NCBI RefSeq assembly: GCF_014466955.1
Contig: NZ_AP023396.1
Location: 7,768,429-7,832,428, forward strand
Length of the DNA: 64,000 nucleotides
Reading direction: 5' to 3'
Source of the DNA: Nocardia wallacei
GTDB taxonomy: Bacteria > Actinomycetota > Actinomycetes > Mycobacteriales > Mycobacteriaceae
A program made the translations under genes and the position numbers. A model generated the notes under the pieces. It saw only the letters and a program-made list of their open reading frames with translations. It searched no databases and was not told where the DNA came from. Numbering within the stretch: the stretch's first letter is position 1; each line of letters starts with the position of its first letter. Of this stretch, positions 19,523 to 31,543 are shown piece by piece.

Positions 19523-20524
19523 CTAGCCGCCCGGCTGCGGGGCGGGCGCGGGCTGCCCGCCGGTGCCCGGCGCCGGCTGGTCACCGCCCGGCGTAGGGAC
19601 CGGGCCCATGTCGTTCATCATCGGCGACTGGAAGCTGGAGGCCAGCCACTTGTCGCCCTTCTTCTCCATCGTCGCCACCACACCGATGGTGATGTGCTGC
19701 GGCTGCGGGGAGGCCGCCTTGGACTGGTTCTGCGTGATCAGCATGATCACGGTGGCCTTGTCCTCGTCGCCGCTCTCCCACGCGCAGTGGATCTCGTCGA
19801 TCCCCGAGCGCGCCTGCGCCTGGGTGGTGATGTCCTTCAGGGCGGAGGAGGCGGCCTCGAACTGGGTCGCCCAGTCGCCGGTGGACCGGTCCTTGACCCG
19901 CTTGACGTAGTCGTCGAAGTTCTTCGCGTCGTAGGTGCCGACCTGGCGGCCGAAATCGCAGGCGGCCGCGGTCGATTCGTCCCGCGCGTCCAGCTGTGCG
20001 CCCCGATCGCTCGCCTGCAACGCGAACACCACCACCGCGGTGATCGCGGCCACCAGCAGTACGCCCGCGGCGAAGGCCGCGACGATCGGCAGCCAGCTGG
20101 GTCGGCCACCGCCACCGGACGGCGCGGCCGCGGTGGCACCCGCGGCCCTCGGCTGGCTCAACTTGACCGTCGGCTCGTCCGCGGCGGCTGACTTGCTCGC
20201 CGCAGCCTTGTCCTCGGCGGGTTTGCTCGCCGCCTTGTCCGCGGCGGACGCGCTCGTTCCAGCCTTGTCCGCGGCGGACGCGCTCGTTCCAGCCTTGTCC
20301 GCGGCGGACGCGCTCGTTCCAGCCGTGCCCTCGGTGGACTCGCTCGCTCCAGCCGTGCCCTCGGTGGACTCGCTCGCTCCAGCCGTGCCCTCGGTCTTCG
20401 CACCGGCGTCGGAATCGAACTCGGCCGTCACGTCCGCGTCGGTGCTGTCTTGCGGCCGAGCAGCGTCGGCCGTCGCCTCGGCGTCGGTATTCGTGTCGTC
20501 CTTGGCAGCGTCTTCATCGGACAT
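19523..20524 (-). CDS. Mce-associated single-pass membrane protein with repetitive acidic N-terminus
   Basis: The protein has 333 aa, starting at the ATG 20522-20524. Residues 1-135 are acidic, Ala/Ser/Thr-rich and contain decapeptide repeats (EGTAGASEST three times, ADKAGTSASA three times). One transmembrane helix (PIVAAFAAGVLLVAAITAVVVFAL) lies near 145-168. The extracytoplasmic domain (FDDYVKRVKDRSTGDWATQF, TIGVVATMEKKGDKWLASSF) matches Mce-associated proteins, which stabilise Mce lipid importers. It follows mceF by 130 bp on the same strand, so it belongs to that cluster. The C-terminus is a Pro/Gly-rich tail. Confidence 0.8.
   Translation of the reverse strand: MSDEDAAKDDTNTDAEATADAARPQDSTDADVTAEFDSDAGAKTEGTAGASESTEGTAGASESTEGTAGTSASAADKAGTSASAADKAGTSASAADKAASKPAEDKAAASKSAAADEPTVKLSQPRAAGATAAAPSGGGGRPSWLPIVAAFAAGVLLVAAITAVVVFALQASDRGAQLDARDESTAAACDFGRQVGTYDAKNFDDYVKRVKDRSTGDWATQFEAASSALKDITTQAQARSGIDEIHCAWESGDEDKATVIMLITQNQSKAASPQPQHITIGVVATMEKKGDKWLASSFQSPMMNDMGPVPTPGGDQPAPGTGGQPAPAPQPGG
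20220..20395. repeat. two adjacent families of 30-bp tandem repeat in the Mce-associated gene
   Basis: Units of 30 bp (10 codons) repeat about three times each and encode ADKAGTSASA and EGTAGASEST. They are in frame and confined to the cytoplasmic N-terminus, so they are expected to vary in number between strains. Confidence 0.8.
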
Positions 20525-20654
20525 GAACTGATGCGTCACTTTCCCGGCGTGCTGGGCACACCGCGTAGCCGGATCGGCCCGAACACGTCCGGGCCGACGG
20601 ATTCTGTCAGCGAGTATGCCCGCACCGGCGGTGTCGCCGCCGGGCCGGGTGCAC

Positions 20655-21824
20655 TCACCGCACCGGGGGCAGGGTCCTCTCGTTCGGATCGGCACCCGCC
20701 GGCATCTGGGCGCCGTTGTTGGGCACATCGGGCCGCGGCGCGTTCGCCGAACCGCGGATCTGCTGGTCCGGCGGCGGGTTGGTGCAGTAGTTGTACTTCG
20801 GCAACGAGCCGTCCTGAATCACGTAGGGAGCGGTCGGCTTGTTGTTGTACTCGCAGAACGGGCGCGGCCAGATATCCAGAATGGTGTAGAACTCGTTGTC
20901 GTGCGCCGGGACGCCGATCGCCGACGCACCGGTGACCAGCGAGGGGAACAGCGCCCGCAGCGCCGGGACCCGCAGCTGTGCCGCCTTGGTGATGGCGGCG
21001 AAGTTGGTCGCCAGGCTGGTGATCGGGTCCGCGGTCTTGTCCAGCACCGCCCCCAGCTGCTGCATCTGCTCGGGCGCGGTGTCGAGCACCTTGCGCAATT
21101 CGTCGTTGGCGCCGTTGAACTGGTTGAACAACGTCTGCGAATTGGCGGTCAGGGTGCTCAGGTCCGGCTGCGCGTTGGACGTGGTGGACGCGATCGTGCG
21201 CAGGTTCGCCAGCAGGTTCGTGGTCTGCGGCAGCAGATTGTCCAGACCGGCGGTGACCAGGCTGAGCGCGTCGATCATGCTGCGCATCTGGTCGGGCCCG
21301 CCGGACAGGGCGACGTCCAGTTCGTTCAGGATCGCGGTGAAACGATCCGGGTCGATCTGGTCGAAGAACGCGCTGGCGTTGTCGAGCACCGACCACACCG
21401 GGGTCGGGGTGGTGACCTTCTCCGGGTCGTACTTGATCCTCGCGCCGTCGGCCAGGAACGGACCCTGGTCGGTCTCCGGGCGGAAGTCGATGTACTGCTC
21501 ACCGGCGCCGGACAGGGCCTGCACCGCCACGCGGGTGTCGACCGGGATGCGGTAGCGGCTGTCGATCTCGGCCTCGGCGGAGATCGATCCGCCGTGGTCG
21601 GCCAGCTTGATGTCGTTCACCTTGCCGACGCGGTAGCCGCGCAGGGTCACGTCGTTGCCCGGCTGCAGTCCACCCGAGCGATCCAGCGCCACGGTGACCA
21701 CGTAGGTCTGCCGCACCGGATTCACCCGCATCACGCTGATCAGCAGGTACGTCGCCCCCACCAGGAATACGAGGACCAGGCCCACGCTCGACAGCAGCAG
21801 TTTGTGCCGCTTCAGCCAGCTCAC
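20655..21824 (-). CDS. mceF: MCE family protein, MceF position
   Basis: The 389-aa protein has an N-terminal signal anchor (LLLSSVGLVLVFLVGATYLLISV at residues 8-30) and the MCE domain (YVVTVALDRSGGLQPGNDVTLRGYRVGKVNDIKL), then a long helical needle region and a Pro-rich tail (NNGAQMPAGADPNERTLP). MCE proteins assemble as hetero-hexameric tubes that carry lipids across the periplasm. The start overlaps the mceE stop (ATGA). It is the last true mce gene of the cluster. Confidence 0.88.
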   Translation of the reverse strand: MSWLKRHKLLLSSVGLVLVFLVGATYLLISVMRVNPVRQTYVVTVALDRSGGLQPGNDVTLRGYRVGKVNDIKLADHGGSISAEAEIDSRYRIPVDTRVAVQALSGAGEQYIDFRPETDQGPFLADGARIKYDPEKVTTPTPVWSVLDNASAFFDQIDPDRFTAILNELDVALSGGPDQMRSMIDALSLVTAGLDNLLPQTTNLLANLRTIASTTSNAQPDLSTLTANSQTLFNQFNGANDELRKVLDTAPEQMQQLGAVLDKTADPITSLATNFAAITKAAQLRVPALRALFPSLVTGASAIGVPAHDNEFYTILDIWPRPFCEYNNKPTAPYVIQDGSLPKYNYCTNPPPDQQIRGSANAPRPDVPNNGAQMPAGADPNERTLPPVR

Positions 21825-22921
21825 CGGTGGCCTCCCACTCGTCCCTGGACGATCTGCAATACCTGAATGAGGCTGCCCACCATGTCCTGTGCGTCGCGCA
21901 GGTCGTAGAACTTGCTGTGCGCCGGGTCGGTGATCAGGCCGATGTCGAGCTGGGTGAGGGTCGCGGCGACGGCGAGGACGTTGCCCTTGAACGACGCGTC
22001 CACCGCCGGGCGGATGTCGTGCATGGCGTCCAGCAGCGGACCGAAGTCGGTGCGGGTCTGCGCCAGCGCGCTCATCAGGTTGTGCACGTTGTCGAGCAGG
22101 CTCGACAGCTGCTCGGTGGAGGTGTTCGCGTAGTCGCCCAGCGCCGCGCTGGTGGTCGAGACCTTGGTCAGCAGGTCACCGATCTGCTTGTTGTTCTCGG
22201 CGATGGTGCCGATCATCGACGGCAGCGTGTCGGCGACCTGGCCCAGCTCGTTGTGCCGCGCCTCGATGGTGTCGGCCAGCGCGCCGAATCCGTTGAGGGT
22301 GGAGTCGATGCGCTCGCTGTTGCTGTGCAAGGTCGTTGTCACGCTGGTCATCTGGCGCAGCAGGTTGGCCAGCTGATCGGAACGTCCGCCGACCACCGAG
22401 TCCAGTTCCGAGGTGAGCTTGGTCAGCGCCGCGATCCCGCCGCCGTTGAACAGCATCGAGACCGACAGCAGCAGCTCCTCCACGGTGGCCCCGGCCGAGG
22501 TCTGCTCCAGGGTGAACGTGTCACCGTCGCGCAGCATCGCCGTGCCGGGTTCGGCCTTGGGCTTGGACACCGCGACGAAGACGTCACCGAGCGGGGTGGC
22601 CTGGCGCAGCTCGGCGGTCGACCCCTTGGGGAGCTCGATATCCTTGCGCAGCGTCAGGTCGACGACGGCCTGGAAGTTCTTGGTCTCGATGCGGGTGACC
22701 ACCCCGACGTCCGAACCGCCGATCTTGACCTTGGCCTGGTCGGGCAGGTTCAGCGCGTTGGTGAACACCGCGTGCAGGGTGTAGGTGTCGCCCTGCAGGC
22801 CCGGCTTGGGCAGCGGCACCTTCTCCACCGTCAGGCCGCAGCCCGCCGTGGCCAGCACACCGACCGAGGCGGCCAGCGCCACCACCGCGTGTCGCGCCCG
22901 TCGGGACAGGTGAGGAATCAT
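21821..22921 (-). CDS. mceE: MCE family lipoprotein, MceE position
   Basis: The 366-aa protein starts at ATG 22919-22921, overlapping mceD by 4 bp. The signal peptide (HAVVALAASVGVLATAGC) ends in a lipobox Cys at about residue 28. The MceE-typical LTVEKVPLPKPGLQGDTYTL then leads into the MCE domain (VFTNALNLPDQAKVKIGGSDVG) and a long helical region. In mycobacteria MceE is the lipid-anchored subunit of the importer. The order and the lipobox support the assignment. Confidence 0.88.
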   Translation of the reverse strand: MIPHLSRRARHAVVALAASVGVLATAGCGLTVEKVPLPKPGLQGDTYTLHAVFTNALNLPDQAKVKIGGSDVGVVTRIETKNFQAVVDLTLRKDIELPKGSTAELRQATPLGDVFVAVSKPKAEPGTAMLRDGDTFTLEQTSAGATVEELLLSVSMLFNGGGIAALTKLTSELDSVVGGRSDQLANLLRQMTSVTTTLHSNSERIDSTLNGFGALADTIEARHNELGQVADTLPSMIGTIAENNKQIGDLLTKVSTTSAALGDYANTSTEQLSSLLDNVHNLMSALAQTRTDFGPLLDAMHDIRPAVDASFKGNVLAVAATLTQLDIGLITDPAHSKFYDLRDAQDMVGSLIQVLQIVQGRVGGHR

Positions 22922-24006
22922 TTCGTCATTCCCATCAGTGCCGCGGTCAATCCGAGGTCGGGACCGAGATCTTCGACCTTCCCGGTCCGGCAGCCGTCCG
23001 CGCGCATCTGGATGCGCTCGCAGAACACGCTGATGATCTCGCCGGAGAGGGCGGTGCCGAGCACGCCGCGCAGCCGGATGAAACCGCGCTGGCGGTCCAT
23101 CGTCCGGTCGATGTTCTGCAGCAGCAGCGGCGCGACGTCGACGACCTCGGTGACACCGGCGGCGTTGGCGCGCAGCTGATCGGTGACCGCGGTCAGCCCG
23201 GACAGGCTGGAGGCCAGCTGGTCCTGGTACTGGGTGAACGCGCCGCTGGTGTTGTTGAGGAAGTCGTTCATCTGGGTGAGCGTGGCCTGCAGGCCGGGGG
23301 ACTGCTCGGCGAGCAGCGAGGTCATCTGGGTGACCTGGTTGCTGAAGTCGCGCACCGACTGATCGTTCTCCGCCAGCATGGTCGTCAGCTCGTTGAGCTT
23401 GACGATGATGCTCGCGACCGCGTCCTTGTTGTCGACGCCGACCTTCAACGCGCCGGACAGGGCGTTGAGGGTGTCGCGGATCTTCGAGCCCTGGCCGTTG
23501 ACCATGTCGTAGAGCAGGGTGCCCGACAGCGGGCCCTCCGCCGCGCCCGGCGCGGGCTTGAGCGCGTCGGCGAACTGGTCGATGGTTTTGATCATCGTGT
23601 CCAGCTCGACCGGCGTGCGGGTCTGCTCGACGGTCAGGTGCGACTTGTCGGGCAGGGTCGGCCCGCCGGTGTAGCGCGGAGTGAGCTCGATGTGGCGGTC
23701 GGTGACGATGGACGGCGAAATCAGCGCGGCCGTCACGTCTTTCGGCAGTTTCACATCGCTGTTGACGACCATGTGGACCTCGACGAACTGCCCCTTGGGC
23801 ACGATCTTGTCCACCTTGCCGACCTCGAGGCCGAGCACCGTGATCGGGTTGCCCTCGAACATGCCCGCGATATTGCGGAAGTCCGCGGTGATGTGCTGTG
23901 TCGTGCCGACCGCGTCCTGGACGTCGGTCGGCACGACCGAACAACTGCCGAGCGCCAGCGCCGCCACACCGAGCACCGCCACCTTCGCGGCCCGCATCAC
24001 TGTCAT
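22918..24006 (-). CDS. mceD: MCE family protein, MceD position, with lipobox
   Basis: The protein has about 362 aa, starting at the ATG (MTVMRAAKV) that overlaps the mceC stop by ATGA. The N-terminus VAVLGVAALALGSCSVVP looks like a lipoprotein signal with Cys near residue 21, so this cluster may have two lipid-anchored subunits. The MCE domain follows (ITADFRNIAGMFEGNPITVLGLEVGKV), then helical repeats and a short tail. Assignment as MceD rests on position. Confidence 0.85.
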   Translation of the reverse strand: MTVMRAAKVAVLGVAALALGSCSVVPTDVQDAVGTTQHITADFRNIAGMFEGNPITVLGLEVGKVDKIVPKGQFVEVHMVVNSDVKLPKDVTAALISPSIVTDRHIELTPRYTGGPTLPDKSHLTVEQTRTPVELDTMIKTIDQFADALKPAPGAAEGPLSGTLLYDMVNGQGSKIRDTLNALSGALKVGVDNKDAVASIIVKLNELTTMLAENDQSVRDFSNQVTQMTSLLAEQSPGLQATLTQMNDFLNNTSGAFTQYQDQLASSLSGLTAVTDQLRANAAGVTEVVDVAPLLLQNIDRTMDRQRGFIRLRGVLGTALSGEIISVFCERIQMRADGCRTGKVEDLGPDLGLTAALMGMTK

Positions 24007-25010
24007 CCCTGGCACCCCTCGTGAATTCGCGCGAAGCACAACCAGTTGTCCGGGAACAGCCACGGCAGGCCGACCTCGCCGTAGGGGCCGTTACCGAGCG
24101 CGTTGTTCAGCCCGCGGATGCCCACCGGCATGATCTGCAGCAAGCGGTCCAGGTTGTCCTTGTTCTTCTGCAGGCCCTCGGCCATGGTGTTCAGCTGTTC
24201 GATGGTCGGGCCGAGCTGATTGTCGTTCTCGGCGCCGATCTCCTGCAGCTGCTTGGTCAGCGACGCGATGTTGTCGAGCAGCTGGCGCAGCAGGGTCTGC
24301 CGTTCCATCACCCGGCTCGCGATCGCCTGGCCCTGGGTGATCACCAGCAGCACGCTGTTGCGGTTGTCGCCGAGGATCTTGGTGACCCGGTCGAGGTCCT
24401 TCAGCAGCTGGTCGACCTGGTCGCGGCGATCGTTGATGGTCTTGGCCAGCGCGCCGACGCTGTCGAGCGCCTGCGCGGTCAGGTGCGGCTGCCCGTTGAT
24501 CTGGTCGCCGATCACCTGGAACGACTCGGCCAGTTTCTTGGTGTCGAGCGCCTCGAACTTCGGCGTGCCGATCTGCACCACGTCGGCCAGGTCGTAGGGA
24601 ACCTGGGTGTTGTTCTTTGGGATTCGCTTGCCCTTCAGCCCGGAACCGTCGCCCGGATCCAGGTTGATGTAGCGCGCGCCGAGCAGCGTGGCCATCTTGA
24701 TCGAGGCCTTGGCGTCGGGGCCCAGCTTCACGTCGTTGTTCACCTGCAGGGTGAGCAGCACGTGATCGCCCTCGAGTTCGGCGCCGGACACAGTGCCCAC
24801 CGGCACGCCGGACACGTTGACCTTGTCGCCGACCCGCACACCGGCGGTCTGGGCGAACTCCGCCTTGATGTCCTGGGTGCCGACGCCGAGCTTGCGGTAA
24901 CCGCTGGAGGCGATCAGCAGCACCACGATGAGTACCGCGCCGAGCACGCCCAGCCAGAAGTAGCGATTGCTGTTGAATCGGTTCTTGAGCTTGGTCATCA
25001 TGGCCGGCAC
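24003..25010 (-). CDS. mceC: MCE family protein, MceC position
   Basis: The 335-aa protein has a signal anchor FWLGVLGAVLIVVLLIASSGY near residue 18 and the MCE domain IKAEFAQTAGVRVGDKVNVSG. Long amphipathic helices follow, containing QLLKDLDRVTKILGDNRNS. It overlaps the mceB stop by 13 bp if started at MPAMM; the internal Met three codons on would give 4 bp. It is a subunit of the lipid-import tube together with its neighbours. Confidence 0.87.
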   Translation of the reverse strand: MPAMMTKLKNRFNSNRYFWLGVLGAVLIVVLLIASSGYRKLGVGTQDIKAEFAQTAGVRVGDKVNVSGVPVGTVSGAELEGDHVLLTLQVNNDVKLGPDAKASIKMATLLGARYINLDPGDGSGLKGKRIPKNNTQVPYDLADVVQIGTPKFEALDTKKLAESFQVIGDQINGQPHLTAQALDSVGALAKTINDRRDQVDQLLKDLDRVTKILGDNRNSVLLVITQGQAIASRVMERQTLLRQLLDNIASLTKQLQEIGAENDNQLGPTIEQLNTMAEGLQKNKDNLDRLLQIMPVGIRGLNNALGNGPYGEVGLPWLFPDNWLCFARIHEGCQG

Positions 25011-26026
25011 ACCGCCGAGTGCGAGTGGCCGCCGATCTGGGTGAGCAGACCGCGGGGCAGCAGGATGTTGTAGAGCGAGACGTCCAGGCTGCAGATGTAG
25101 GCCGACGCGTAGGCGCCGTTCTGCGTGAACTTACCGAGATCGGCGAGGATGTTCGGCATGTCCACGGCGGCCTGGTCGAGCTTGGCGCCGTTGTCGATCA
25201 ACAGGGTCAGCGCGTCGGTGGTGGAGCGCTGCGCCTGCGCCAGCTTCGGCTGGATCTGTCCGACCATGTTCACCAATCCCGTTGTGGCGTCGGCGATCTG
25301 CACCGTCGACTGCTGCAGGGACTGCCCCTGGTCGTACAGCCCGCCGATGAGCGCGCGGGTCTGGGTCACCAATGTCTCCAATTCGTCGCCCCGCTTGGCC
25401 AGGCCCTGCATGGTCGCCGACAGGTTCGTGATGACGTCGGCGAGGATGGCGTCGCGCCGCTGGAAGTCGCCCGCCAGCGCGGCCGCCTGGGTGAGGAAGG
25501 TGCTCAGCGACACCCCGTCACCCTGCAGGGCCTGGATGAACGTGGTGGACAGGTTGTTGACCTGCTCCGGCTGCAATACCTGGAACAGCGGCTGGAAACC
25601 GTTGAGCAGCCCGGAGATGTCGAAGGACGGCTCGGTCTGGTCCAGCGGGATCGAGCCCTTGTCCCGCAGCGGCGCGGCGTCGCCCTTGGTACCGGGGGCG
25701 AGCGCCACGTAGCGCTGCCCGATCAGGTTCTGGTACCGCACCAGGGCCTTGGTGTTGCCGAACAGCGTCTGGTCGTCCTGCACCACGAAGGTGACCTTGG
25801 CCCGGTGCTGACCGTCGAGCTCGATCTTCTCGACCTTGCCGACCCGCACCCCGGCCATCCGGACATCGTCGTTGACCCGCAGTCCGAGCACGTCGCTGAA
25901 GGTCGCGGAGTAGGTCTTGGTGGAGCCGGAGACGTTGCGCGCCAACGTGTTCCAGACCAGGACCGTCACCAGGACCGACACGATCGCGAAGATCCCGAAG
26001 CCGATCAGCGGTTTGCGAATGCTCAT
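24998..26026 (-). CDS. mceB: MCE family protein, MceB position
   Basis: The 342-aa protein starts MSIRKPLIGFGIFAIVSVLVTVLVW, a signal anchor. The MCE domain YSATFSDVLGLRVNDDVRMAGVRVGKVEKI follows, then the needle helices and the MceB-like C-terminal YICSLDVSLYN. It is the first intact gene of the cluster. The expected mceA and yrbE permeases are missing upstream; only the overlapping end of a preceding frame remains. Whether a promoter still drives it is unclear. Confidence 0.87.
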   Translation of the reverse strand: MSIRKPLIGFGIFAIVSVLVTVLVWNTLARNVSGSTKTYSATFSDVLGLRVNDDVRMAGVRVGKVEKIELDGQHRAKVTFVVQDDQTLFGNTKALVRYQNLIGQRYVALAPGTKGDAAPLRDKGSIPLDQTEPSFDISGLLNGFQPLFQVLQPEQVNNLSTTFIQALQGDGVSLSTFLTQAAALAGDFQRRDAILADVITNLSATMQGLAKRGDELETLVTQTRALIGGLYDQGQSLQQSTVQIADATTGLVNMVGQIQPKLAQAQRSTTDALTLLIDNGAKLDQAAVDMPNILADLGKFTQNGAYASAYICSLDVSLYNILLPRGLLTQIGGHSHSAVCRP

Positions 26027-26070
26027 CGGGCTGCACCGCTTTCGGTGACTTGCAAGGTTCCACCCCTCAG
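26023..26070 (-). pseudogene. probable residual 3' end of mceA
   Basis: A minus-strand frame ends in GGTLQVTESGAAR and a TGA that overlaps the mceB ATG (ATGA), exactly the coupling seen between all other genes of the cluster. Upstream of about 26070 the same frame turns into the antisense of the L,D-transpeptidase fragment. It is therefore most simply the last codons of a lost mceA. This is inference from overlap and position; the tail itself has no diagnostic motif. Confidence 0.45.
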
Positions 26071-26415
26071 GATCGAGCTCAACACGAAACGCCCAACGGC
26101 ACCTACTACGTGGGCGAGAAGAACCGGAAGATGATCATGGACTCCTCCACCTACGGGGTCCCGACCACCGATCCGGAGGGCTACAAGCTCGAGGTCGAGT
26201 ACGCCACCCGCCTGTCCAACAGCGGCATCTTCGTGCACTCGGCCCCGTGGTCGGTCCCGCAGCAGGGTGTGTCGGACACCAGCCACGGCTGCCTCAACGT
26301 CAGCCCGGCCGACGCCCAGTGGTTCTTCGAGAACGCGCAGAAGGGCGACCCGGTGATCGTGCAGAACTCCACCGGCACCTTCAGCGCCGGCGACGGCATG
26401 GGCGACTGGAACTGA
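26050..26415 (+). pseudogene. L,D-transpeptidase catalytic-domain fragment, 5'-truncated
   Basis: From about 26080 the frame reads HETPNGTYYVGEKNRKMIM, SSTYGVPTTDPEGY, GIFVHSAPWSV and SHGCLNVSPADAQWF and ends GDGMGDWN. These are the YkuD catalytic residues (His, Ser-His-Gly-Cys) of an LdtMt2-like 3-3 peptidoglycan cross-linking enzyme. The signal peptide, Ig-like domains and the first strands of the catalytic domain are absent. No believable start with a ribosome site exists at 26050 (TTG). Upstream DNA belongs to the mce cluster on the other strand. It is a broken gene or an assembly join. Confidence 0.8.
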
Positions 26416-26441
26416 ACGCGCGCCGCTGACGCAGCCTCACC

Positions 26442-26470
26442 CGGCCCCGGACGGATTCCGTCCGGGGCCG
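26442..26470 (+). terminator. intrinsic terminator after the L,D-transpeptidase fragment
   Basis: A 13-bp perfect stem (CGGCCCCGGACGG with CCGTCCGGGGCCG, 3-nt loop) begins 27 bp after the stop codon. It is followed by TGGTCATTTC rather than a long T run. Confidence 0.7.
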
Positions 26471-26552
26471 TGGTCATTTCGCGCACCGACAGTTCCCTGG
26501 CCGGGCATCGGTAATTAACCGGGCGGTCGCCCGCGAACGTCACACTGCCGCA

Positions 26553-27449
26553 GTGCGGTCCCGGCCCGAACGAGTGCGTCCCTGGACCGACTACGCGCTG
26601 TTCGTGGTGCTCGTGGGGCCGAGCCTGATCTTGTTCGGCCTGTTCGGGTTCCGGCCGCTACTGGACACCATCCGCCTCTCGTTCACCGACCGGAACCTCG
26701 CCGAGCCGGTGGCGCACTACATCGGCGTCGAGAACTATCGGGAGTGGTGGGGGCGAGGCGATTCCTGGCAGATCCTCACCAACACCGTTGTTTTCGCGCT
26801 GGCGGCGGTCGGCGGCAGTCTGCTGCTGGGACTCGGCCTGGCGCTGCTGCTGAATCGGAAGCTGTTCGGGCGCAGTGTCGTTCGCTCGGTGGCCGTCGCG
26901 CCGGTGGTGATCTCCGGCGCCGCCGTCGGCGTGGCCTTCCAGTTCCTGTTCGATCCGACCTTCGGCCTGATCCAGGACGTGCTGCACCGCCTCGGAGTTT
27001 CGAATGTGCCGGATTTCTACCAGAATTCGCATTGGGCGCTGGGCATGGTGACGGCCACCCACGTCTGGAAAAACCTCGGCTACACCTTCGTCATCTACCT
27101 GGCGGCGCTGCGCGGTATACGGCGAGAGTTGCTGGAAGCGGCCGCGATCGACGGCGCGGGCCGGTGGGCGACGCTCACCCGGGTGCTGCTGCCGCAGTTG
27201 CGGCCGACCACGTTGTTCCTGTCGATCACCGTGCTGCTCAACTCGTTACAGGTCTTCGATCTCATCCACGTGCTGACCCGCGGCGGCCCGCTGGGCACCG
27301 GCACGACCACCCTCACCTATCAGGTGTACCTGGAATCGTTCCGCAATTCCCGCGCGGGGTACGGCGCCGTGGTGGCGACCGTGCTGTTCGTGGCGCTGCT
27401 GGTCGTGGCGCTGGTTCAGATTTGGGCCATGGACCGAGGTGAGCGATGA
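26553..27449 (+). CDS. sugar/glycerol-phosphate ABC transporter permease, UgpA-like
   Basis: The 298-aa protein starts at GTG. Six membrane segments are visible, beginning DYALFVVLVGPSLILFGLFGF, with FRPLLDTIRLSFTD after the first helix as in MalF/UgpA-class permeases. The EAA loop AAAIDGAGRWATLTRVLLPQLRPTT near residue 195 contacts the ATPase. It overlaps the second permease by ATGA. In the mycobacterial ugpAEBC order this would be the first gene, with the binding protein and ATPase downstream, but these are absent here. No clear ribosome site precedes the GTG. Confidence 0.8.
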   Translation: MRSRPERVRPWTDYALFVVLVGPSLILFGLFGFRPLLDTIRLSFTDRNLAEPVAHYIGVENYREWWGRGDSWQILTNTVVFALAAVGGSLLLGLGLALLLNRKLFGRSVVRSVAVAPVVISGAAVGVAFQFLFDPTFGLIQDVLHRLGVSNVPDFYQNSHWALGMVTATHVWKNLGYTFVIYLAALRGIRRELLEAAAIDGAGRWATLTRVLLPQLRPTTLFLSITVLLNSLQVFDLIHVLTRGGPLGTGTTTLTYQVYLESFRNSRAGYGAVVATVLFVALLVVALVQIWAMDRGER

Positions 27450-28330
27450 GCACGACCGCCGCACACCGCCGCACACAGCGCGCGGCCACGCTGCTCGGCT
27501 ACGCCGCGATGGTGTGCGTGCTGATCATCGTGGGCGTGCCGCTGTCGCGGGTACTGATCACCTCGTTCGAGGCCCGGCCGGACATCTACACCCAACCGGC
27601 GGTGTGGTGGCCGCGCACCTGGCACCCCGGCAACTACACCGAGGCCACGACCGCGCAGCCGTTCCGGTCGTTCCTGCGCAATTCGCTGCTCGTCACCGCG
27701 ATCGTCGTTGCGGTGAAGTTCGTGCTCGGTGTCGGCGGCGCCTACGGCCTGGTGTTCCTGCGCTTTCCGGGCAAGACCGCGATCTTCGCGCTGGTCGTCG
27801 CCGCGTTGCTGGTACCCGACGAGGTCACGGTCATCTCCAACTACACCCTGGTCGACCAGTGGGGCTGGCGAAACACCTTGCCGGGCGTCATCGTTCCGCT
27901 GTGCGGCGGCGCGTTCGGTATCTTCCTGCTGCGCAATCACTTCCGGTCGCTGCCCGCCGAGGTGATCGAGGCCGCCCGCATGGACGGCGCCGGCCGGTGG
28001 CAGTTGCTCACCCGGGTGGTGCTGCCGATGTCCGGGCCGACCATGGTGGCGTTCGCCGTGGTCACGTTCGTCACCGAGTGGAACGAGTACCTCTGGCCGC
28101 TGCTGATGGCCGACGACGCCCGCGCCGCCACGCTGCCGGTGGGACTGACCATGTTGCAGGAGACCGAGAACCCGTCCGTCACCGACTGGGGGCCGGTGAC
28201 GGCCGGGACACTGCTCACGATGCTGCCGATGCTGCTGGTCTTCCTGCTCGGGCAGCGTCACCTGATCCGGGGTCTCACCAGATGCGTACCCGCTGCGCCG
28301 GATCCAGATACAGGGCGTCGCCCTCGGTGA
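27446..28330 (+). CDS. sugar/glycerol-phosphate ABC transporter permease, UgpE-like, C-terminus altered
   Basis: This MalG/UgpE-class permease has six helices, a periplasmic loop (FEARPDIYTQPAVWWPRTWHPGNYTEA) and the EAA loop AARMDGAGRWQLLTRVVLPMSGPT near residue 170. Family members end with a short tail after RYLIxGLTxGAxKG. Here RHLIRGLT is followed by RCVPAAPDPDTGRRPR, which is simply the antisense of the last codons of the M13 peptidase gene. The natural last residues are therefore missing, and the expected binding-protein and ATPase genes do not follow. Confidence 0.75.
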   Translation: MSTTAAHRRTQRAATLLGYAAMVCVLIIVGVPLSRVLITSFEARPDIYTQPAVWWPRTWHPGNYTEATTAQPFRSFLRNSLLVTAIVVAVKFVLGVGGAYGLVFLRFPGKTAIFALVVAALLVPDEVTVISNYTLVDQWGWRNTLPGVIVPLCGGAFGIFLLRNHFRSLPAEVIEAARMDGAGRWQLLTRVVLPMSGPTMVAFAVVTFVTEWNEYLWPLLMADDARAATLPVGLTMLQETENPSVTDWGPVTAGTLLTMLPMLLVFLLGQRHLIRGLTRCVPAAPDPDTGRRPR

Positions 28331-30257
28331 CCTCGAAGGCCTCGTGGAAGCCGTCCAGATTGCGGACCACGCCGTTGCAGCGGAACTCCGGCGGCGAATG
28401 CGGGTCGACGGCGAGGCGGCGGATCGCCTCCTCCTTGCGAGCCTTGGTGCGCCACACCTGCGCCCAGCCGAAGAACACCCGCTGCAGCCCGGTGAGACCG
28501 TCGACGATCGGCGGCTCGGCGCCGTCCAGCGCGATCTTGTAGGCCTGCAACGCGATCGACAGACCGCCCAGGTCCCCGATGTTCTCGCCGATGGTGAATT
28601 CGCCGTTGACCGTGTGATTGTCGGGCAGGTCGGCGGGGGAGAACCGGCTGTACTGGTCGATCAGCGCCTTGGTGCGCTTGCCGAATTCGGCGCGATCGGC
28701 GTCGGTCCACCAGTCGACCATGTTGCCGTCGCCGTCGTACTTGCTGCCCTGATCGTCGAAGCCGTGCCCGATCTCGTGACCGATCACCGCGCCGATCCCG
28801 CCGTAGTTGGCGGCGTCGTCGGCGTTCATGTCGAAGAACGGCGGTTGCAGGATCGCGGCGGGAAAGACGATCTCGTTCATCCCCGGGTTGTAGTAGGCGT
28901 TGACCGTCTGCGGCGTCATGAACCACTCGTCGCGATCGACCGGGCCGCCGAGCTTGTTCAGGTCGCGGTCGTGCTCGGCGGCGTAGCCGCGGCGGTAGTT
29001 GCCGACCAGATCGGCCGGGTCGATCCGCACGGCCGAGTAGTCGCGCCAGCGGTCCGGGTAGCCGATCTTGGGGGTGAACTTCTCCAGCTTCGCCAGCGCG
29101 GCCTTGCGGGTGTCGGGGCCCATCCACTCCAGCTGGGAGATATTGCGGCGGTAGGCCTCGATCAGATTGGCCACCAGCTCCCGCATGCGCTGCTTGGCCT
29201 CCGGCGGAAAGTGCTTCGCCACGTACAGCTTGCCGACCGCCTCGCCGAGCAGGTCCTGCACCAGCGACACGCCCCGCTTCCAGCGCTCGCGGTTCTCCTG
29301 CGCGCCGGTGAGGGTGCGGCCGTAGAAGTCGAAGTTCTCCGCGACCAGCTCCGCGGTCAGATACGGAGCCCGCGCGCGCAGCACCCGCCAGGTGGCCCAC
29401 GCCTGCCAATCCGCGAGCGACTCCGCGGCCCACAACCGGGCGAAGGTGCGCGCGTAATCCGGTTGGCGCACCACGAGTTCGGCGAACAGCTCCGGACCGG
29501 GACGGTCCACGCCCGCGGCCGTCGCGGTGGCCCATGCGGCCCAGTCGAATTCGGGGTTCTCCGCGGTGAGCGCGTCGAAAGTGGTGAGGTTGTAACTCAA
29601 TTCGGCGTCGCGGCGGCGCACCACGTCCCAGTGCCCGGCCGCGAGCTTGCGCTCCAGTTCGAAGACCCGCTGCGGATCGTGGTCGATCCCGGCGAGGGCG
29701 AACATGCGGCCGATGTGCTCGACGTAGCGCGTGCGGATCTCGGCGTAGTCGTCACCGCGGTAGTACGACTCGTCGGGCAGGCCGATGCCGGACTGGGTGG
29801 CATGGACGAGGTAGCGCTGCGAGTTCTTGTCGTCGGTGTCGACGTAGAACGCCAGCGCGCCGCCGACGCCGGTGCGCTGCAACCGGCCCAGCAGCGCCGC
29901 GAACGCGCTACGGTCGGTGACGTCGCGGATCTCGGCCAGCTCGTCGGCGATCGGGGCGAGACCGGCGGATTCCACGGCCGCCTCGTCCATGAAGCTGTTG
30001 TAGAGGTCGCCGATCTTGCGCTCGACGCTGCCCGGCGCGGCGTCGGAGGCGGCGGCATCCTGGATGATCGTCTGCACGTCGAGTTCCGCCTGGTCGTACA
30101 GCGTGCGGAAGGCGCCGTCGACCGCGCGATCGGCCGGGATCTCGTGGGTCTGCAGCCACTTGCCGTTGACGTGTGCGAACAGGTCGTCCTGCACCCGCAC
30201 AGCGTCGTCGCGATAGGACAGATCGATTCCGGAGGGGGTCGTCACGTCGGCAGTCAC
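28275..30257 (-). CDS. M13 family zinc metallopeptidase (PepO/neprilysin-like)
   Basis: The 660-aa protein lacks a signal peptide. The catalytic domain contains NAYYNPGMNEIVFPAAIL, the zinc motif VIGHEIGHGFDDQGSKYD near residues 494-511, and ENIGDLGGLSIAL supplying the third zinc ligand and Asp. The C-terminus ends VRIW, the conserved Trp of the family. It cleaves short peptides. The N-terminal half (DLFAHVNGKWLQTHEIPADR) is complete. The gene is intact, but the convergent permease frame runs 56 bp into its 3' end. Confidence 0.92.
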   Translation of the reverse strand: MTADVTTPSGIDLSYRDDAVRVQDDLFAHVNGKWLQTHEIPADRAVDGAFRTLYDQAELDVQTIIQDAAASDAAPGSVERKIGDLYNSFMDEAAVESAGLAPIADELAEIRDVTDRSAFAALLGRLQRTGVGGALAFYVDTDDKNSQRYLVHATQSGIGLPDESYYRGDDYAEIRTRYVEHIGRMFALAGIDHDPQRVFELERKLAAGHWDVVRRRDAELSYNLTTFDALTAENPEFDWAAWATATAAGVDRPGPELFAELVVRQPDYARTFARLWAAESLADWQAWATWRVLRARAPYLTAELVAENFDFYGRTLTGAQENRERWKRGVSLVQDLLGEAVGKLYVAKHFPPEAKQRMRELVANLIEAYRRNISQLEWMGPDTRKAALAKLEKFTPKIGYPDRWRDYSAVRIDPADLVGNYRRGYAAEHDRDLNKLGGPVDRDEWFMTPQTVNAYYNPGMNEIVFPAAILQPPFFDMNADDAANYGGIGAVIGHEIGHGFDDQGSKYDGDGNMVDWWTDADRAEFGKRTKALIDQYSRFSPADLPDNHTVNGEFTIGENIGDLGGLSIALQAYKIALDGAEPPIVDGLTGLQRVFFGWAQVWRTKARKEEAIRRLAVDPHSPPEFRCNGVVRNLDGFHEAFEVTEGDALYLDPAQRVRIW

Positions 30258-30306: not shown

Positions 30307-30681
30307 TCACACCGGCACCCGGTCGAACTCGCCCGCGCGGGCCCCGGCGACGAACGCGTCCCACTCGCCCGGCGTGTAAGTCAGCGCCAGGTCCGCGTGA
30401 CTCACTGTGGTGGAACCGTCGGCGGCCGTGCGCGCGATCAGCCCCGCGGTCCGCGCGGTCCCGCCGATCACGGCGTCGAGGAAGGCCATCCATTCGCCCG
30501 CGGTGACGGTGATGACGGGCTCGTCCGCGGGGCGATGCGCCGGATCGCGCCGGAACTTGCTGTCCCGGATCAGCACCGCGTCGCCGTCGAACCGGACCTC
30601 CACGCACTGGTTGCCATTGTTGGTACGGCTCGAGGTGAACCAGCCGGTGGCCTCGGGCCGATACCTGGCGGTGGTTGGCAT
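30307..30681 (-). CDS. DUF397 protein, two tandem copies
   Basis: The 124-aa protein starts at the ATG 30679-30681. WFTSSRTNNGNQCVEVRF at residues 13-30, then VLIRDSKF and VTAGEWMAFLDAV, is a full DUF397 domain. The second half (ADLALTYTPGEWDAFVAGA) is a shortened copy. DUF397 genes sit directly after XRE/DUF5753 regulators in actinobacteria and behave like antidote or effector partners in development and secondary metabolism. Here the regulator stop is 11 bp upstream. Confidence 0.85.
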   Translation of the reverse strand: MPTTARYRPEATGWFTSSRTNNGNQCVEVRFDGDAVLIRDSKFRRDPAHRPADEPVITVTAGEWMAFLDAVIGGTARTAGLIARTAADGSTTVSHADLALTYTPGEWDAFVAGARAGEFDRVPV

Positions 30682-30691
30682 GGGCAGGATC

Positions 30692-31543
30692 TTACCCTCG
30701 CGCATGCTTTCTGATCAGCGCCAACGACTCAGTGCGACTGAGGGATTGGTCGAGCGCCCGGGCATAGGCGAACGCCAGGTCACGCACCTGGTCCGGATTC
30801 TCGACCGCGCCGCCGAACACCGCGCTCTCCGCCCACGCGAACGTCGGCAGCGTCGCACCGGCGAAGTCGAGCAGGTGGAAGCTGGAGCCGCCCAGCATCG
30901 CACCCGCCGGAGCGCTGAACGGGATCACCCGCACCTCCACGGTGTCGAGATCCTCCAGCAGCTCCAGCAGATATTCCAGCTGGCCGCGCAGCACCTCGGC
31001 CCCGCCGATCTGCTGCAGCAGCGTCGCCTCGCTCACCACCGCGGTCAGCCGTGCCCGATCCGGACCGCGCAGCCGTTGCTGCCTGCGCATCCGGACCGCC
31101 ACCAACTGTTCCACCAGCACCGGCCGGATCATCACGTCCGCGCTGATCAGCGCCCGCGCGTAGGCCTCGGTCTGCAACAGGCCCGGCACCACGAGGCTGT
31201 CGTAGCTGCGGATGCTGTCCGCGCCGTACTCCATGCCGTAGTAGCGCTGCAACTCCGGGCCGAGCACAGCCGACGCCTTGGCCCACCAGCCGCGATCCTT
31301 GCTCGCCGTCAGCAGCGACAGCAGTTCGTCGCGGTCGCCGTCGCCCACTTCCAGCAGGTCCAGCACCGGGCCGATGGTGGTCAGGGTCAGGACGCGGCGG
31401 CCCTTCTCCACATGTGACCAGTTGGCCGGGGTGAAGCCGACCCGTTTGGCGAAGGTGGCCGAATCGAAGCCCCGTCGCTCGCGCAGCTCACGCAGGCGCA
31501 GCACCAATTCCCAGCGGGCGACCGTAGGCGACAGCGGAGCCAT
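30692..31543 (-). CDS. XRE-family regulator with DUF5753 domain
   Basis: The 283-aa protein has an N-terminal helix-turn-helix (LRELRERRGFDSATFAKRVGFTPANWSHVEKGRRV, residues 16-50) followed by the large DUF5753 domain. The latter carries LVVPGLLQTEAYARALI and QLVAVRMRRQQRL near 130-175. Such proteins, with DUF397 partners, are an actinobacterial regulatory pair related to BldB/WhiJ systems. The upstream 74 bp to the DUF4190 gene include an unusually AT-rich stretch (31569-31600) likely to contain the promoter. Confidence 0.9.
   Translation of the reverse strand: MAPLSPTVARWELVLRLRELRERRGFDSATFAKRVGFTPANWSHVEKGRRVLTLTTIGPVLDLLEVGDGDRDELLSLLTASKDRGWWAKASAVLGPELQRYYGMEYGADSIRSYDSLVVPGLLQTEAYARALISADVMIRPVLVEQLVAVRMRRQQRLRGPDRARLTAVVSEATLLQQIGGAEVLRGQLEYLLELLEDLDTVEVRVIPFSAPAGAMLGGSSFHLLDFAGATLPTFAWAESAVFGGAVENPDQVRDLAFAYARALDQSLSRTESLALIRKHARG

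What the first reader, a model, noticed from the sequence alone, without database searches (positions are those of the whole stretch)
26023..28330. Mce cluster beheaded by a 2.2-kb piece broken at both ends
mceB-F are intact and all coupled, but mceA and the two yrbE permeases are absent. The only trace of mceA is a 13-residue tail ending in ATGA with mceB. The adjacent DNA holds a transpeptidase lacking its N-terminal half, then UgpA/UgpE-type permeases whose last residues are replaced by antisense of the M13 gene. Both ends of the piece therefore fall within genes, and ugpB/ugpC do not follow. Either a rearrangement or an assembly chimera explains this. If real, the MceB-F tube has no MceA or YrbE here.
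Basis: partly seen in the sequence, partly recalled or inferred. Interest (0 to 1): 0.75.

Follow-up and report, generated by a model that had tools for sequence, protein, structure and literature searches.

The report
Mce operon beheaded by chromosomal deletion
A lipid-uptake gene cluster in a Nocardia chromosome has lost its first three genes to one deletion of roughly 11 kilobases, and a neighbouring transporter was trimmed by a second small deletion; this looks like ordinary gene loss rather than a foreign insert or an assembly error.

Summary
In relatives the order is M13 – ugp genes – L,D-transpeptidase (LDT) – P450 – other genes – protease – yrbEA – yrbEB – mceA – mceB-F. The 2.2-kb LDT-ugpA-ugpE segment is therefore native, flanked by two deletions. 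Deletion 1 (window 26081-26084) removed about 10.9 kb (N. transvalensis as yardstick): all of mceA but 18-19 codons, both yrbE permeases, protease, P450 and more, and the 5' two thirds of LDT. Deletion 2 (28277-28279) removed about 0.22 kb relative to the nearest relative and clipped ugpE at the M13 stop. At most 3 bp are shared at the joints, so illegitimate joining is likely. The nearest relative keeps the removed genes. The joint-1 pattern occurs in 1 of 150 Nocardia genomes. Sizes identify N. wallacei FMUON74, a closed hybrid assembly with concordant assemblers, so a chimera is unlikely. No orphan mceA or yrbE was found. MceB-F probably form no transporter: the one MceA paralogue compared, from the operon with the closest YrbE, is 54% identical. 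mceB-F show no measurable decay; ugpAE do. New instance of a known kind (like RD7/mce3); low interest.

The parts
19523..20728 (-). Likely Mce-associated (Mas/Mam-type) protein downstream of mceF
   Evidence: ORF; function inferred from position only, not tested
20655..21824 (-). mceF, open
   Evidence: TIGR00996 MCE family
21821..22921 (-). mceE, open (lipobox by eye)
22918..24006 (-). mceD, open; two extra copies of its body elsewhere in the chromosome
24003..25010 (-). mceC, open
24998..26026 (-). mceB, open, now first gene of the cluster
26023..26082 (-). mceA remnant: last 18-19 codons plus stop, overlapping mceB in ATGA
   Evidence: identical 19-residue suffix with MceA of G001/L009
26081..26084 (.). 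Joint of deletion 1; 10.1-11.5 kb present here in three relatives (10.9 kb in N. transvalensis); at most 3 bp shared
   Evidence: pattern in 1 of 150 genomes
26083..26415 (+). 3' third of an L,D-transpeptidase gene; lacks signal region, Ig domain and the first 35 positions of the catalytic-domain profile
26553..27449 (+). ugpA-type permease, native neighbour of the LDT gene, relaxed
27446..28330 (+). ugpE-type permease: 278 native residues plus 16 read from antisense M13
28277..28279 (.). Joint of deletion 2 (about 0.22 kb missing relative to G001); shared ACC
28275..30257 (-). M13 metallopeptidase, full length; its stop codon (TGA) is supplied by ugpE sequence, G001 has TAG

Best explanation
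Two lineage-specific illegitimate deletions in an otherwise collinear chromosome region. Shown: the order in relatives is M13 – (ugpC – ugpB, or in nearer relatives an MDMPI-like gene) – ugpE – ugpA – LDT – P450 – other genes – trypsin-like protease – yrbEA – yrbEB – mceA – mceB-F. Deletion 1 removed about 10.9 kb (by comparison with N. transvalensis) from inside the LDT gene to the last 18-19 codons of mceA. Deletion 2 removed about 0.22 kb (by comparison with G001) from the last codons of ugpE to the M13 stop codon, leaving M13 full length. Inferred: both arose by end-joining or slippage, since at most 3 bp are shared at the joints. Inferred: MceB-F can no longer make a working Mce transporter because the YrbE permeases, the sixth ring subunit and the native upstream region are gone; the LDT piece is dead; UgpA/UgpE, without UgpB/UgpC beside them, are decaying. 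Inferred: deletion 1 is recent relative to the split from the closest relative, because mceB-F do not yet show relaxed constraint.
For: Five of 5 related loci examined upstream of mceB carry yrbEA-yrbEB-mceA there: L009, L012, L114, L116, L117. In 10 of the 19 loci the LDT 3' part lies about 7-8 kb upstream of mceB, and in L114, L116 and L117 at 10.1-11.5 kb. LDT-ugpA-ugpE-M13 neighbourhood in relatives. The closest relative (G001, mceB 97%) keeps the protease, yrbEA, yrbEB and mceA on one contig (L009) and MFS, lipoprotein-like, secreted-type, beta-lactamase-fold, P450 and LDT genes on another (L115). Same breakpoints in other genomes. Joint 1 in 1 of 150. No long repeat: longest exact direct match 9 bp between 300-bp windows centred on the two breakpoints in L114. 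Own genome: 16 yrbE = 8 pairs, 56 MCE domains = 8x6 + 5 here + 3 orphans; the orphans are one MceB-like and two MceD-like, none MceA. LDT 5' part and P450 orthologue: best own matches 47% and 37%. Window-branch syn/nonsyn changes: mceB-F 27/10, flanking genes 47/19, ugpAE 30/40; mce vs ugp p = 0.004. Assembly.
Against: No raw reads were mapped here. The protease and the MFS, lipoprotein-like, secreted-type and beta-lactamase-fold genes were not searched in the own genome, so their relocation is not excluded. In G001 the region is split over contigs, so its full collinearity is not shown. In G003 the LDT orthologue was not found and the P450 only as a fragment; contigs end there. In 9 of the 19 loci no LDT was found within the fetched flank; for N. 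transvalensis (L026) it lies further out, others are short of contig or more distant genera. Whether one event or several nested ones made joint 1 cannot be told. ugpAE do not differ significantly between window and sister branch (p = 0.15), nor mceB-F from ugpAE on the sister branch (p = 0.14); counts are small. G001 mceD was only partly available (codons 36-362).
Confidence: 0.94

Rival explanations
1. Assembly chimera or collapse: the strain has the full locus and the joint was made by the assembler.
For: Both joints fall inside genes and none of the other 149 genomes searched has the joint-1 pattern. The genes are present in the nearest relative.
Against: No long repeat at the joint-1 breakpoints that could cause a collapse. 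Order and orientation on both sides are those of relatives, unlike a random chimera. Reads were not examined here.
Confidence: 0.04
2. Insertion or translocation of a 2.2-kb LDT-ugpAE piece into an mce cluster.
For: Both ends of the segment are truncated genes.
Against: The segment is in the same place between M13 and the mce operon in relatives. An insertion would leave yrbE/mceA next to it or elsewhere, and no unattached copy is found.
Confidence: 0.01
3. MceB-F are still used: they pair in trans with YrbE and MceA from a paralogous operon (for example the one at G000:C1:7070363-7078359) to form a hybrid Mce transporter.
For: YrbE of 7 of the 8 other operons was compared and the closest has YrbEA 70% and YrbEB 61% identity. 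In M. smegmatis an MceA paralogue encoded elsewhere (80% identical) replaces Mce1A (PMC10517005, passages). mceB-F show no relaxation (27 syn / 10 nonsyn, against 33/12 on the sister branch).
Against: The MceA of that operon, the only one compared, is 54% identical over 351 residues to G001 MceA, whereas in M. smegmatis a 60% paralogue did not co-purify. mceB-F lost their upstream region; no promoter was tested. The absence of relaxation is equally explained by a recent deletion.
Confidence: 0.06

Closest known systems
RD7 deletion of the mce3 operon in the M. tuberculosis complex
   Same: Lineage-specific chromosomal deletion that takes mce genes together with neighbours (PMC5360109, passages). 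That the other mce operons there stay intact is recalled, not checked.
   Different: The table of that paper lists yrbE3A, yrbE3B and the mce3 genes together as RD7 genes found only in the human isolates; here only the head (yrbEA, yrbEB, mceA) is lost and B-F remain open.
Canonical Actinomycetales mce operon / Mce1 transporter (8FED-8FEF)
   Same: mceB-F have the gene order, MCE domain and overlaps of the canonical operon; MceB matches the M. smegmatis Mce1 chain 8fed_B (E 5e-47).
   Different: The solved complex has one each of YrbE1A, YrbE1B and Mce1A-F plus two MceG (PMC9882608, passages); the counterparts of three of those are deleted here.
M. smegmatis MceA paralogue (MSMEG_6540) complexes
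   Same: An MceA supplied from elsewhere can complete Mce1B-F (PMC10517005, passages).
   Different: There YrbE1AB are present and the paralogue is 80% identical; here YrbE is missing from the locus and the MceA compared is 54% identical.
Ugp-type sugar/glycerophosphate ABC importer
   Same: Two adjacent permease genes with UgpA/UgpE as best NCBIfam matches, all below curated cut-offs; four-gene sets in relatives L081 and L082, the last two genes named by eye.
   Different: No ugpB/ugpC beside them and the UgpE C-terminus is replaced.

Membership tests
Canonical mce operon (yrbEA-yrbEB-mceA-F) | Six MCE-domain genes mceA-F in a row | tested here: not met
   Five (B-F) open; mceA reduced to 18-19 codons
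Canonical mce operon (yrbEA-yrbEB-mceA-F) | Two YrbE/MlaE permease genes at the head | tested here: not met
   16 MlaE-family places in the genome, none within this locus
Canonical mce operon (yrbEA-yrbEB-mceA-F) | Head of the orthologous operon present in relatives | tested here: met
   yrbEA-yrbEB-mceA-mceB in 5 of 5 loci examined
Lineage-specific deletion (RD-like) | Collinear flanks, a block missing relative to relatives, sharp joint | tested here: met
Lineage-specific deletion (RD-like) | Missing block not elsewhere in the genome | tested here: inconclusive
   Met for yrbE, mceA, LDT 5' part and P450; protease, MFS, lipoprotein-like, secreted-type and beta-lactamase-fold genes not searched in the own genome
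Lineage-specific deletion (RD-like) | Raw reads cross the joint | not testable with these tools
   Only the published assembly statement
Functional L,D-transpeptidase | Full YkuD domain with N-terminal part | tested here: not met
   Profile 36-146 of 146 only; the L012 relative has an Ig domain plus YkuD 6-146
Complete Ugp ABC importer | UgpB binding protein and UgpC ATPase beside the permeases | tested here: not met
   Nothing lies between ugpE and M13 in the window; in L081/L082 two ORFs lie there, recognised by eye as binding lipoprotein and ABC ATPase

The most novel reading that the evidence does not exclude
The headless MceB-F set is still expressed and assembles into a hybrid Mce complex with YrbE and MceA borrowed from a paralogous operon, or works as a permease-less MCE tube; mceB-F would then be under selection as an interchangeable module, which the two extra copies of the mceD body in the same chromosome would fit.
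Probability: 0.06. Interest if true: 0.6.

Novelty: new member of a known kind. Interest (0 to 1): 0.2.

Why it matters
It is a clean natural loss of MceA and both YrbE permeases with B-F left open, so it suggests that one mce operon is dispensable in a clinical Nocardia isolate, and it places the loss after the split from the nearest relative found. It also shows that the interval between M13 and the mce operon is repeatedly eroded in this clade. It warns against counting mceB-F genes as a working transporter in annotations or virulence-gene tallies. No new system is involved.

Tried and rejected
Rejected: insertion of a foreign 2.2-kb piece (synteny). Rejected: yrbE/mceA relocated elsewhere. 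Rejected for joint 1: recombination between long repeats (joint 2 was not tested that way). Rejected: loss of ugpB/ugpC in the same event as joint 2; they are already missing beside ugpE in N. mexicana (L080), in the strain labelled N. wallacei 740803001 (L079) and in G001 (L078).

Tested without clear result: relaxed selection on mceB-F after beheading (27 syn/10 nonsyn on the window branch vs 33/12 on the sister branch, p = 1), which has low power. In-frame start codons exist upstream in the frame of the mceA tail (for example GTG 20 codons before the stop), but no expression can be inferred. Empty sites of the two mceD copies were not found: in the 9 other genomes searched the flanks gave only weak or partial matches, the longest 71% over 1.4 kb in G002.

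Not used: structure prediction, fold search, homologous-protein search, RNA-family search.
Full report
Source. The window is G000:C1:7768429-7832428 of a genome of 7,892,862 bases in 2 contigs. The chromosome length of 7,832,428 and the total match exactly the closed genome of Nocardia wallacei FMUON74 (7,832,428 + 60,434 bp; PMC7679093, read whole). That paper rotated the chromosome to just upstream of dnaA, so the window is its last 64 kb.

Observation. mceB-F are open and overlapping on the minus strand; LDT, ugpA and ugpE follow on the plus strand; M13 is convergent. The mceA tail is 18-19 residues, not 13.

Order in relatives. The search for related loci gave 19 loci. In 10 of 19 the LDT 3' part lies about 7-8 kb upstream of mceB. 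In the other 9 it was not found within the fetched flank; some of these are short of contig, some are other genera, and in N. transvalensis it lies further out. Five loci were examined upstream of mceB and all 5 have yrbEA-yrbEB-mceA there (L009; L012; L114, L116, L117). Of 9 stretches fetched around ugpE in relatives, 9 of 9 have ugpA, ugpE and M13 on one stretch, and LDT lies next to ugpA in 6 of 9 (L080-L084, L086). L078 and L079 run into a contig end there, and on L085 none was found. M13 lies about 0.2-10 kb from ugpE, in either orientation. Between protease and P450, N. transvalensis (L114) has an MFS transporter, a lipoprotein-like gene, a small secreted-type gene and a beta-lactamase-fold gene. 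The protease label rests on a trypsin-like Pfam match below its cut-off; the lipoprotein-like and secreted-type labels are by eye. The closest relative G001 ("N. wallacei 760185014") has all of these genes: four of them with P450 and LDT on contig L115, and protease-yrbEA-yrbEB-mceA-mceB on contig L009. In G003 the LDT orthologue was not found and the P450 only as a fragment, where its contigs end.

Joint 1. The mce side matches relatives through 26081 and again at 26083-26084; the LDT side matches from 26083. At most 3 bp are shared. The block present in relatives at this point is 10,908 bp (L114), 11,468 bp (L116) and 10,093 bp (L117). The longest exact direct match between 300-bp windows centred on the two breakpoints in L114 is 9 bp. 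The joint pattern with up to 3 mismatches is found in 1 of 150 Nocardia genomes.

Joint 2. ugpE matches G001 through 28279, M13 from 28277, sharing ACC. About 0.22 kb is missing relative to G001. M13 stays full length because its stop, TAG in G001, is now TGA read from ugpE sequence. The interval between ugpE and M13 differs stepwise among relatives. L081 and L082 carry two further ORFs there, recognised by eye as binding protein and ATPase. L079 and L080 have about 0.8 kb with an MDMPI-like gene (Pfam on L080). G001 has about 0.2 kb with a remnant of it (by eye). N. transvalensis (L114) and G143 (L116) have lost ugpA-ugpE altogether: the LDT match ends about 170 and 80 bp before the M13 match, and the best ugpE match in N. 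transvalensis is 33%.

Rest of the genome. There are 16 MlaE-family permeases in 8 pairs and 56 MCE domains. By position these are eight operons of six, five here and three orphans (grouping is mine). The orphans are one MceB-like gene (69% identical to window MceB) and two copies of this cluster's mceD. Hence no orphan mceA and no orphan yrbE was found. Own best matches to LDT outside the window are 47% and to the P450 37%, against 78-81% and 65-66% in G001, G002 and G004. The protease, MFS, lipoprotein-like, secreted-type and beta-lactamase-fold genes were not searched in the own genome.

Decay. Changes polarised with outgroups, window branch syn/nonsyn: mceB-F 27/10, flanking genes 47/19, ugpAE 30/40. 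Sister branch: 33/12, 51/29, 31/23 (sites that could not be polarised were dropped: 109 for mceB-F, 112 for flanks, 81 for ugpAE). On the window branch mceB-F vs ugpAE differ (p = 0.004) and flanks vs ugpAE differ (p = 0.001), mceB-F vs flanks do not (p = 1); on the sister branch mceB-F vs ugpAE do not (p = 0.14). Window vs sister branch: mceB-F p = 1, flanks p = 0.38, ugpAE p = 0.15. ugpAE DNA identity to G001 is 88%, against 93-97% for the others. So ugpAE look decaying, perhaps on both branches, and mceB-F do not, which fits a recent deletion 1.

Function (inferred). The M. smegmatis Mce1 complex contains one each of YrbE1A, YrbE1B and Mce1A-F with two MceG (PMC9882608, passages). In M. smegmatis deletion of yrbE1AB significantly reduced palmitic acid uptake, each of Mce1B-F was required, an 80% identical MceA paralogue could replace Mce1A, and a 60% one did not co-purify (PMC10517005, passages). 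Here YrbE and MceA are gone. YrbE of 7 of the 8 other operons was compared; the nearest is the operon at 7070363-7078359 (YrbEA 70%, YrbEB 61%). Its MceA, the only one compared, is 54% identical to G001 MceA over 351 residues. Rescue in trans is therefore unlikely, though not excluded. The LDT remnant lacks the N-terminal part, the Ig domain and the start of the catalytic domain.

Literature. A search for at least two of "Nocardia wallacei", mce, yrbE gave 32 papers, 10 listed; none of the 10 holds "Nocardia wallacei", and since papers with more terms come first, none holds all three terms; the other 22 were not seen. FMUON74/AP023396 gave 4 papers, of which only PMC7679093 was opened; it does not mention mce. 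So I found no paper on this deletion, within those limits. PMC1810536 (passages) describes proliferation and deletion of mce operons in Mycobacterium and Nocardia. RD7/mce3 is taken from PMC5360109 (passages).

Verdict. Real, ordinary, explained: two deletions in an eroding interval.

Noticed in passing
G000:C1:4371132-4372100 (in L130:9633-10677) and G000:C1:4426306-4427332 (in L131:9231-10333), against window 22925-23957: Two extra copies of this cluster's mceD body, 99.6% identical to each other over 1045 bp and 95% to the window copy. Over 974 aligned positions each differs from the window at 11 of the first 800 (G001: 24), at 32 of the next 80 (a divergent patch both share) and at 9 of the rest. 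Each copy has a different 5' end with its own lipobox-like start (by eye). In 9 related genomes the flanks gave only weak or partial matches.
   Followed up: partly
window 23900-23937: Inverted repeat with 13-base arms in mceD at the lipobox-proximal codons (by eye). G001's contigs break there (one end filled with a run of G), and homology of one orphan mceD copy stops beside it.
   Followed up: partly
L132:6895-7929 (G000:C1 about 2034894-2035928): Orphan MceB-like gene, 73.5% DNA and 69% protein identity to window mceB.
   Followed up: no
window 28275-28279: The deletion removed the M13 stop codon's own bases, yet ugpE sequence supplies a new stop (TGA) at the same codon.
   Followed up: yes
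L114:17337-17507 and L116:18141-18224 (coordinates of the reversed L116): N. transvalensis and genome G143 have lost ugpA-ugpE entirely between LDT and M13, so this interval is repeatedly eroded.
   Followed up: partly
L081 and L082 against the other seven stretches: The M13 gene is inverted relative to its neighbours in L081 and L082.
   Followed up: no
L024/L079 (record titled Nocardia wallacei 740803001): Only 89% (mceB) and 91% (M13) protein identity to this strain; its species label looks doubtful.
   Followed up: no
window 30307-31543: Adjacent DUF397-like and XRE-type regulator genes, also found near M13 in relatives; the names are recalled, no family search was made.
   Followed up: no
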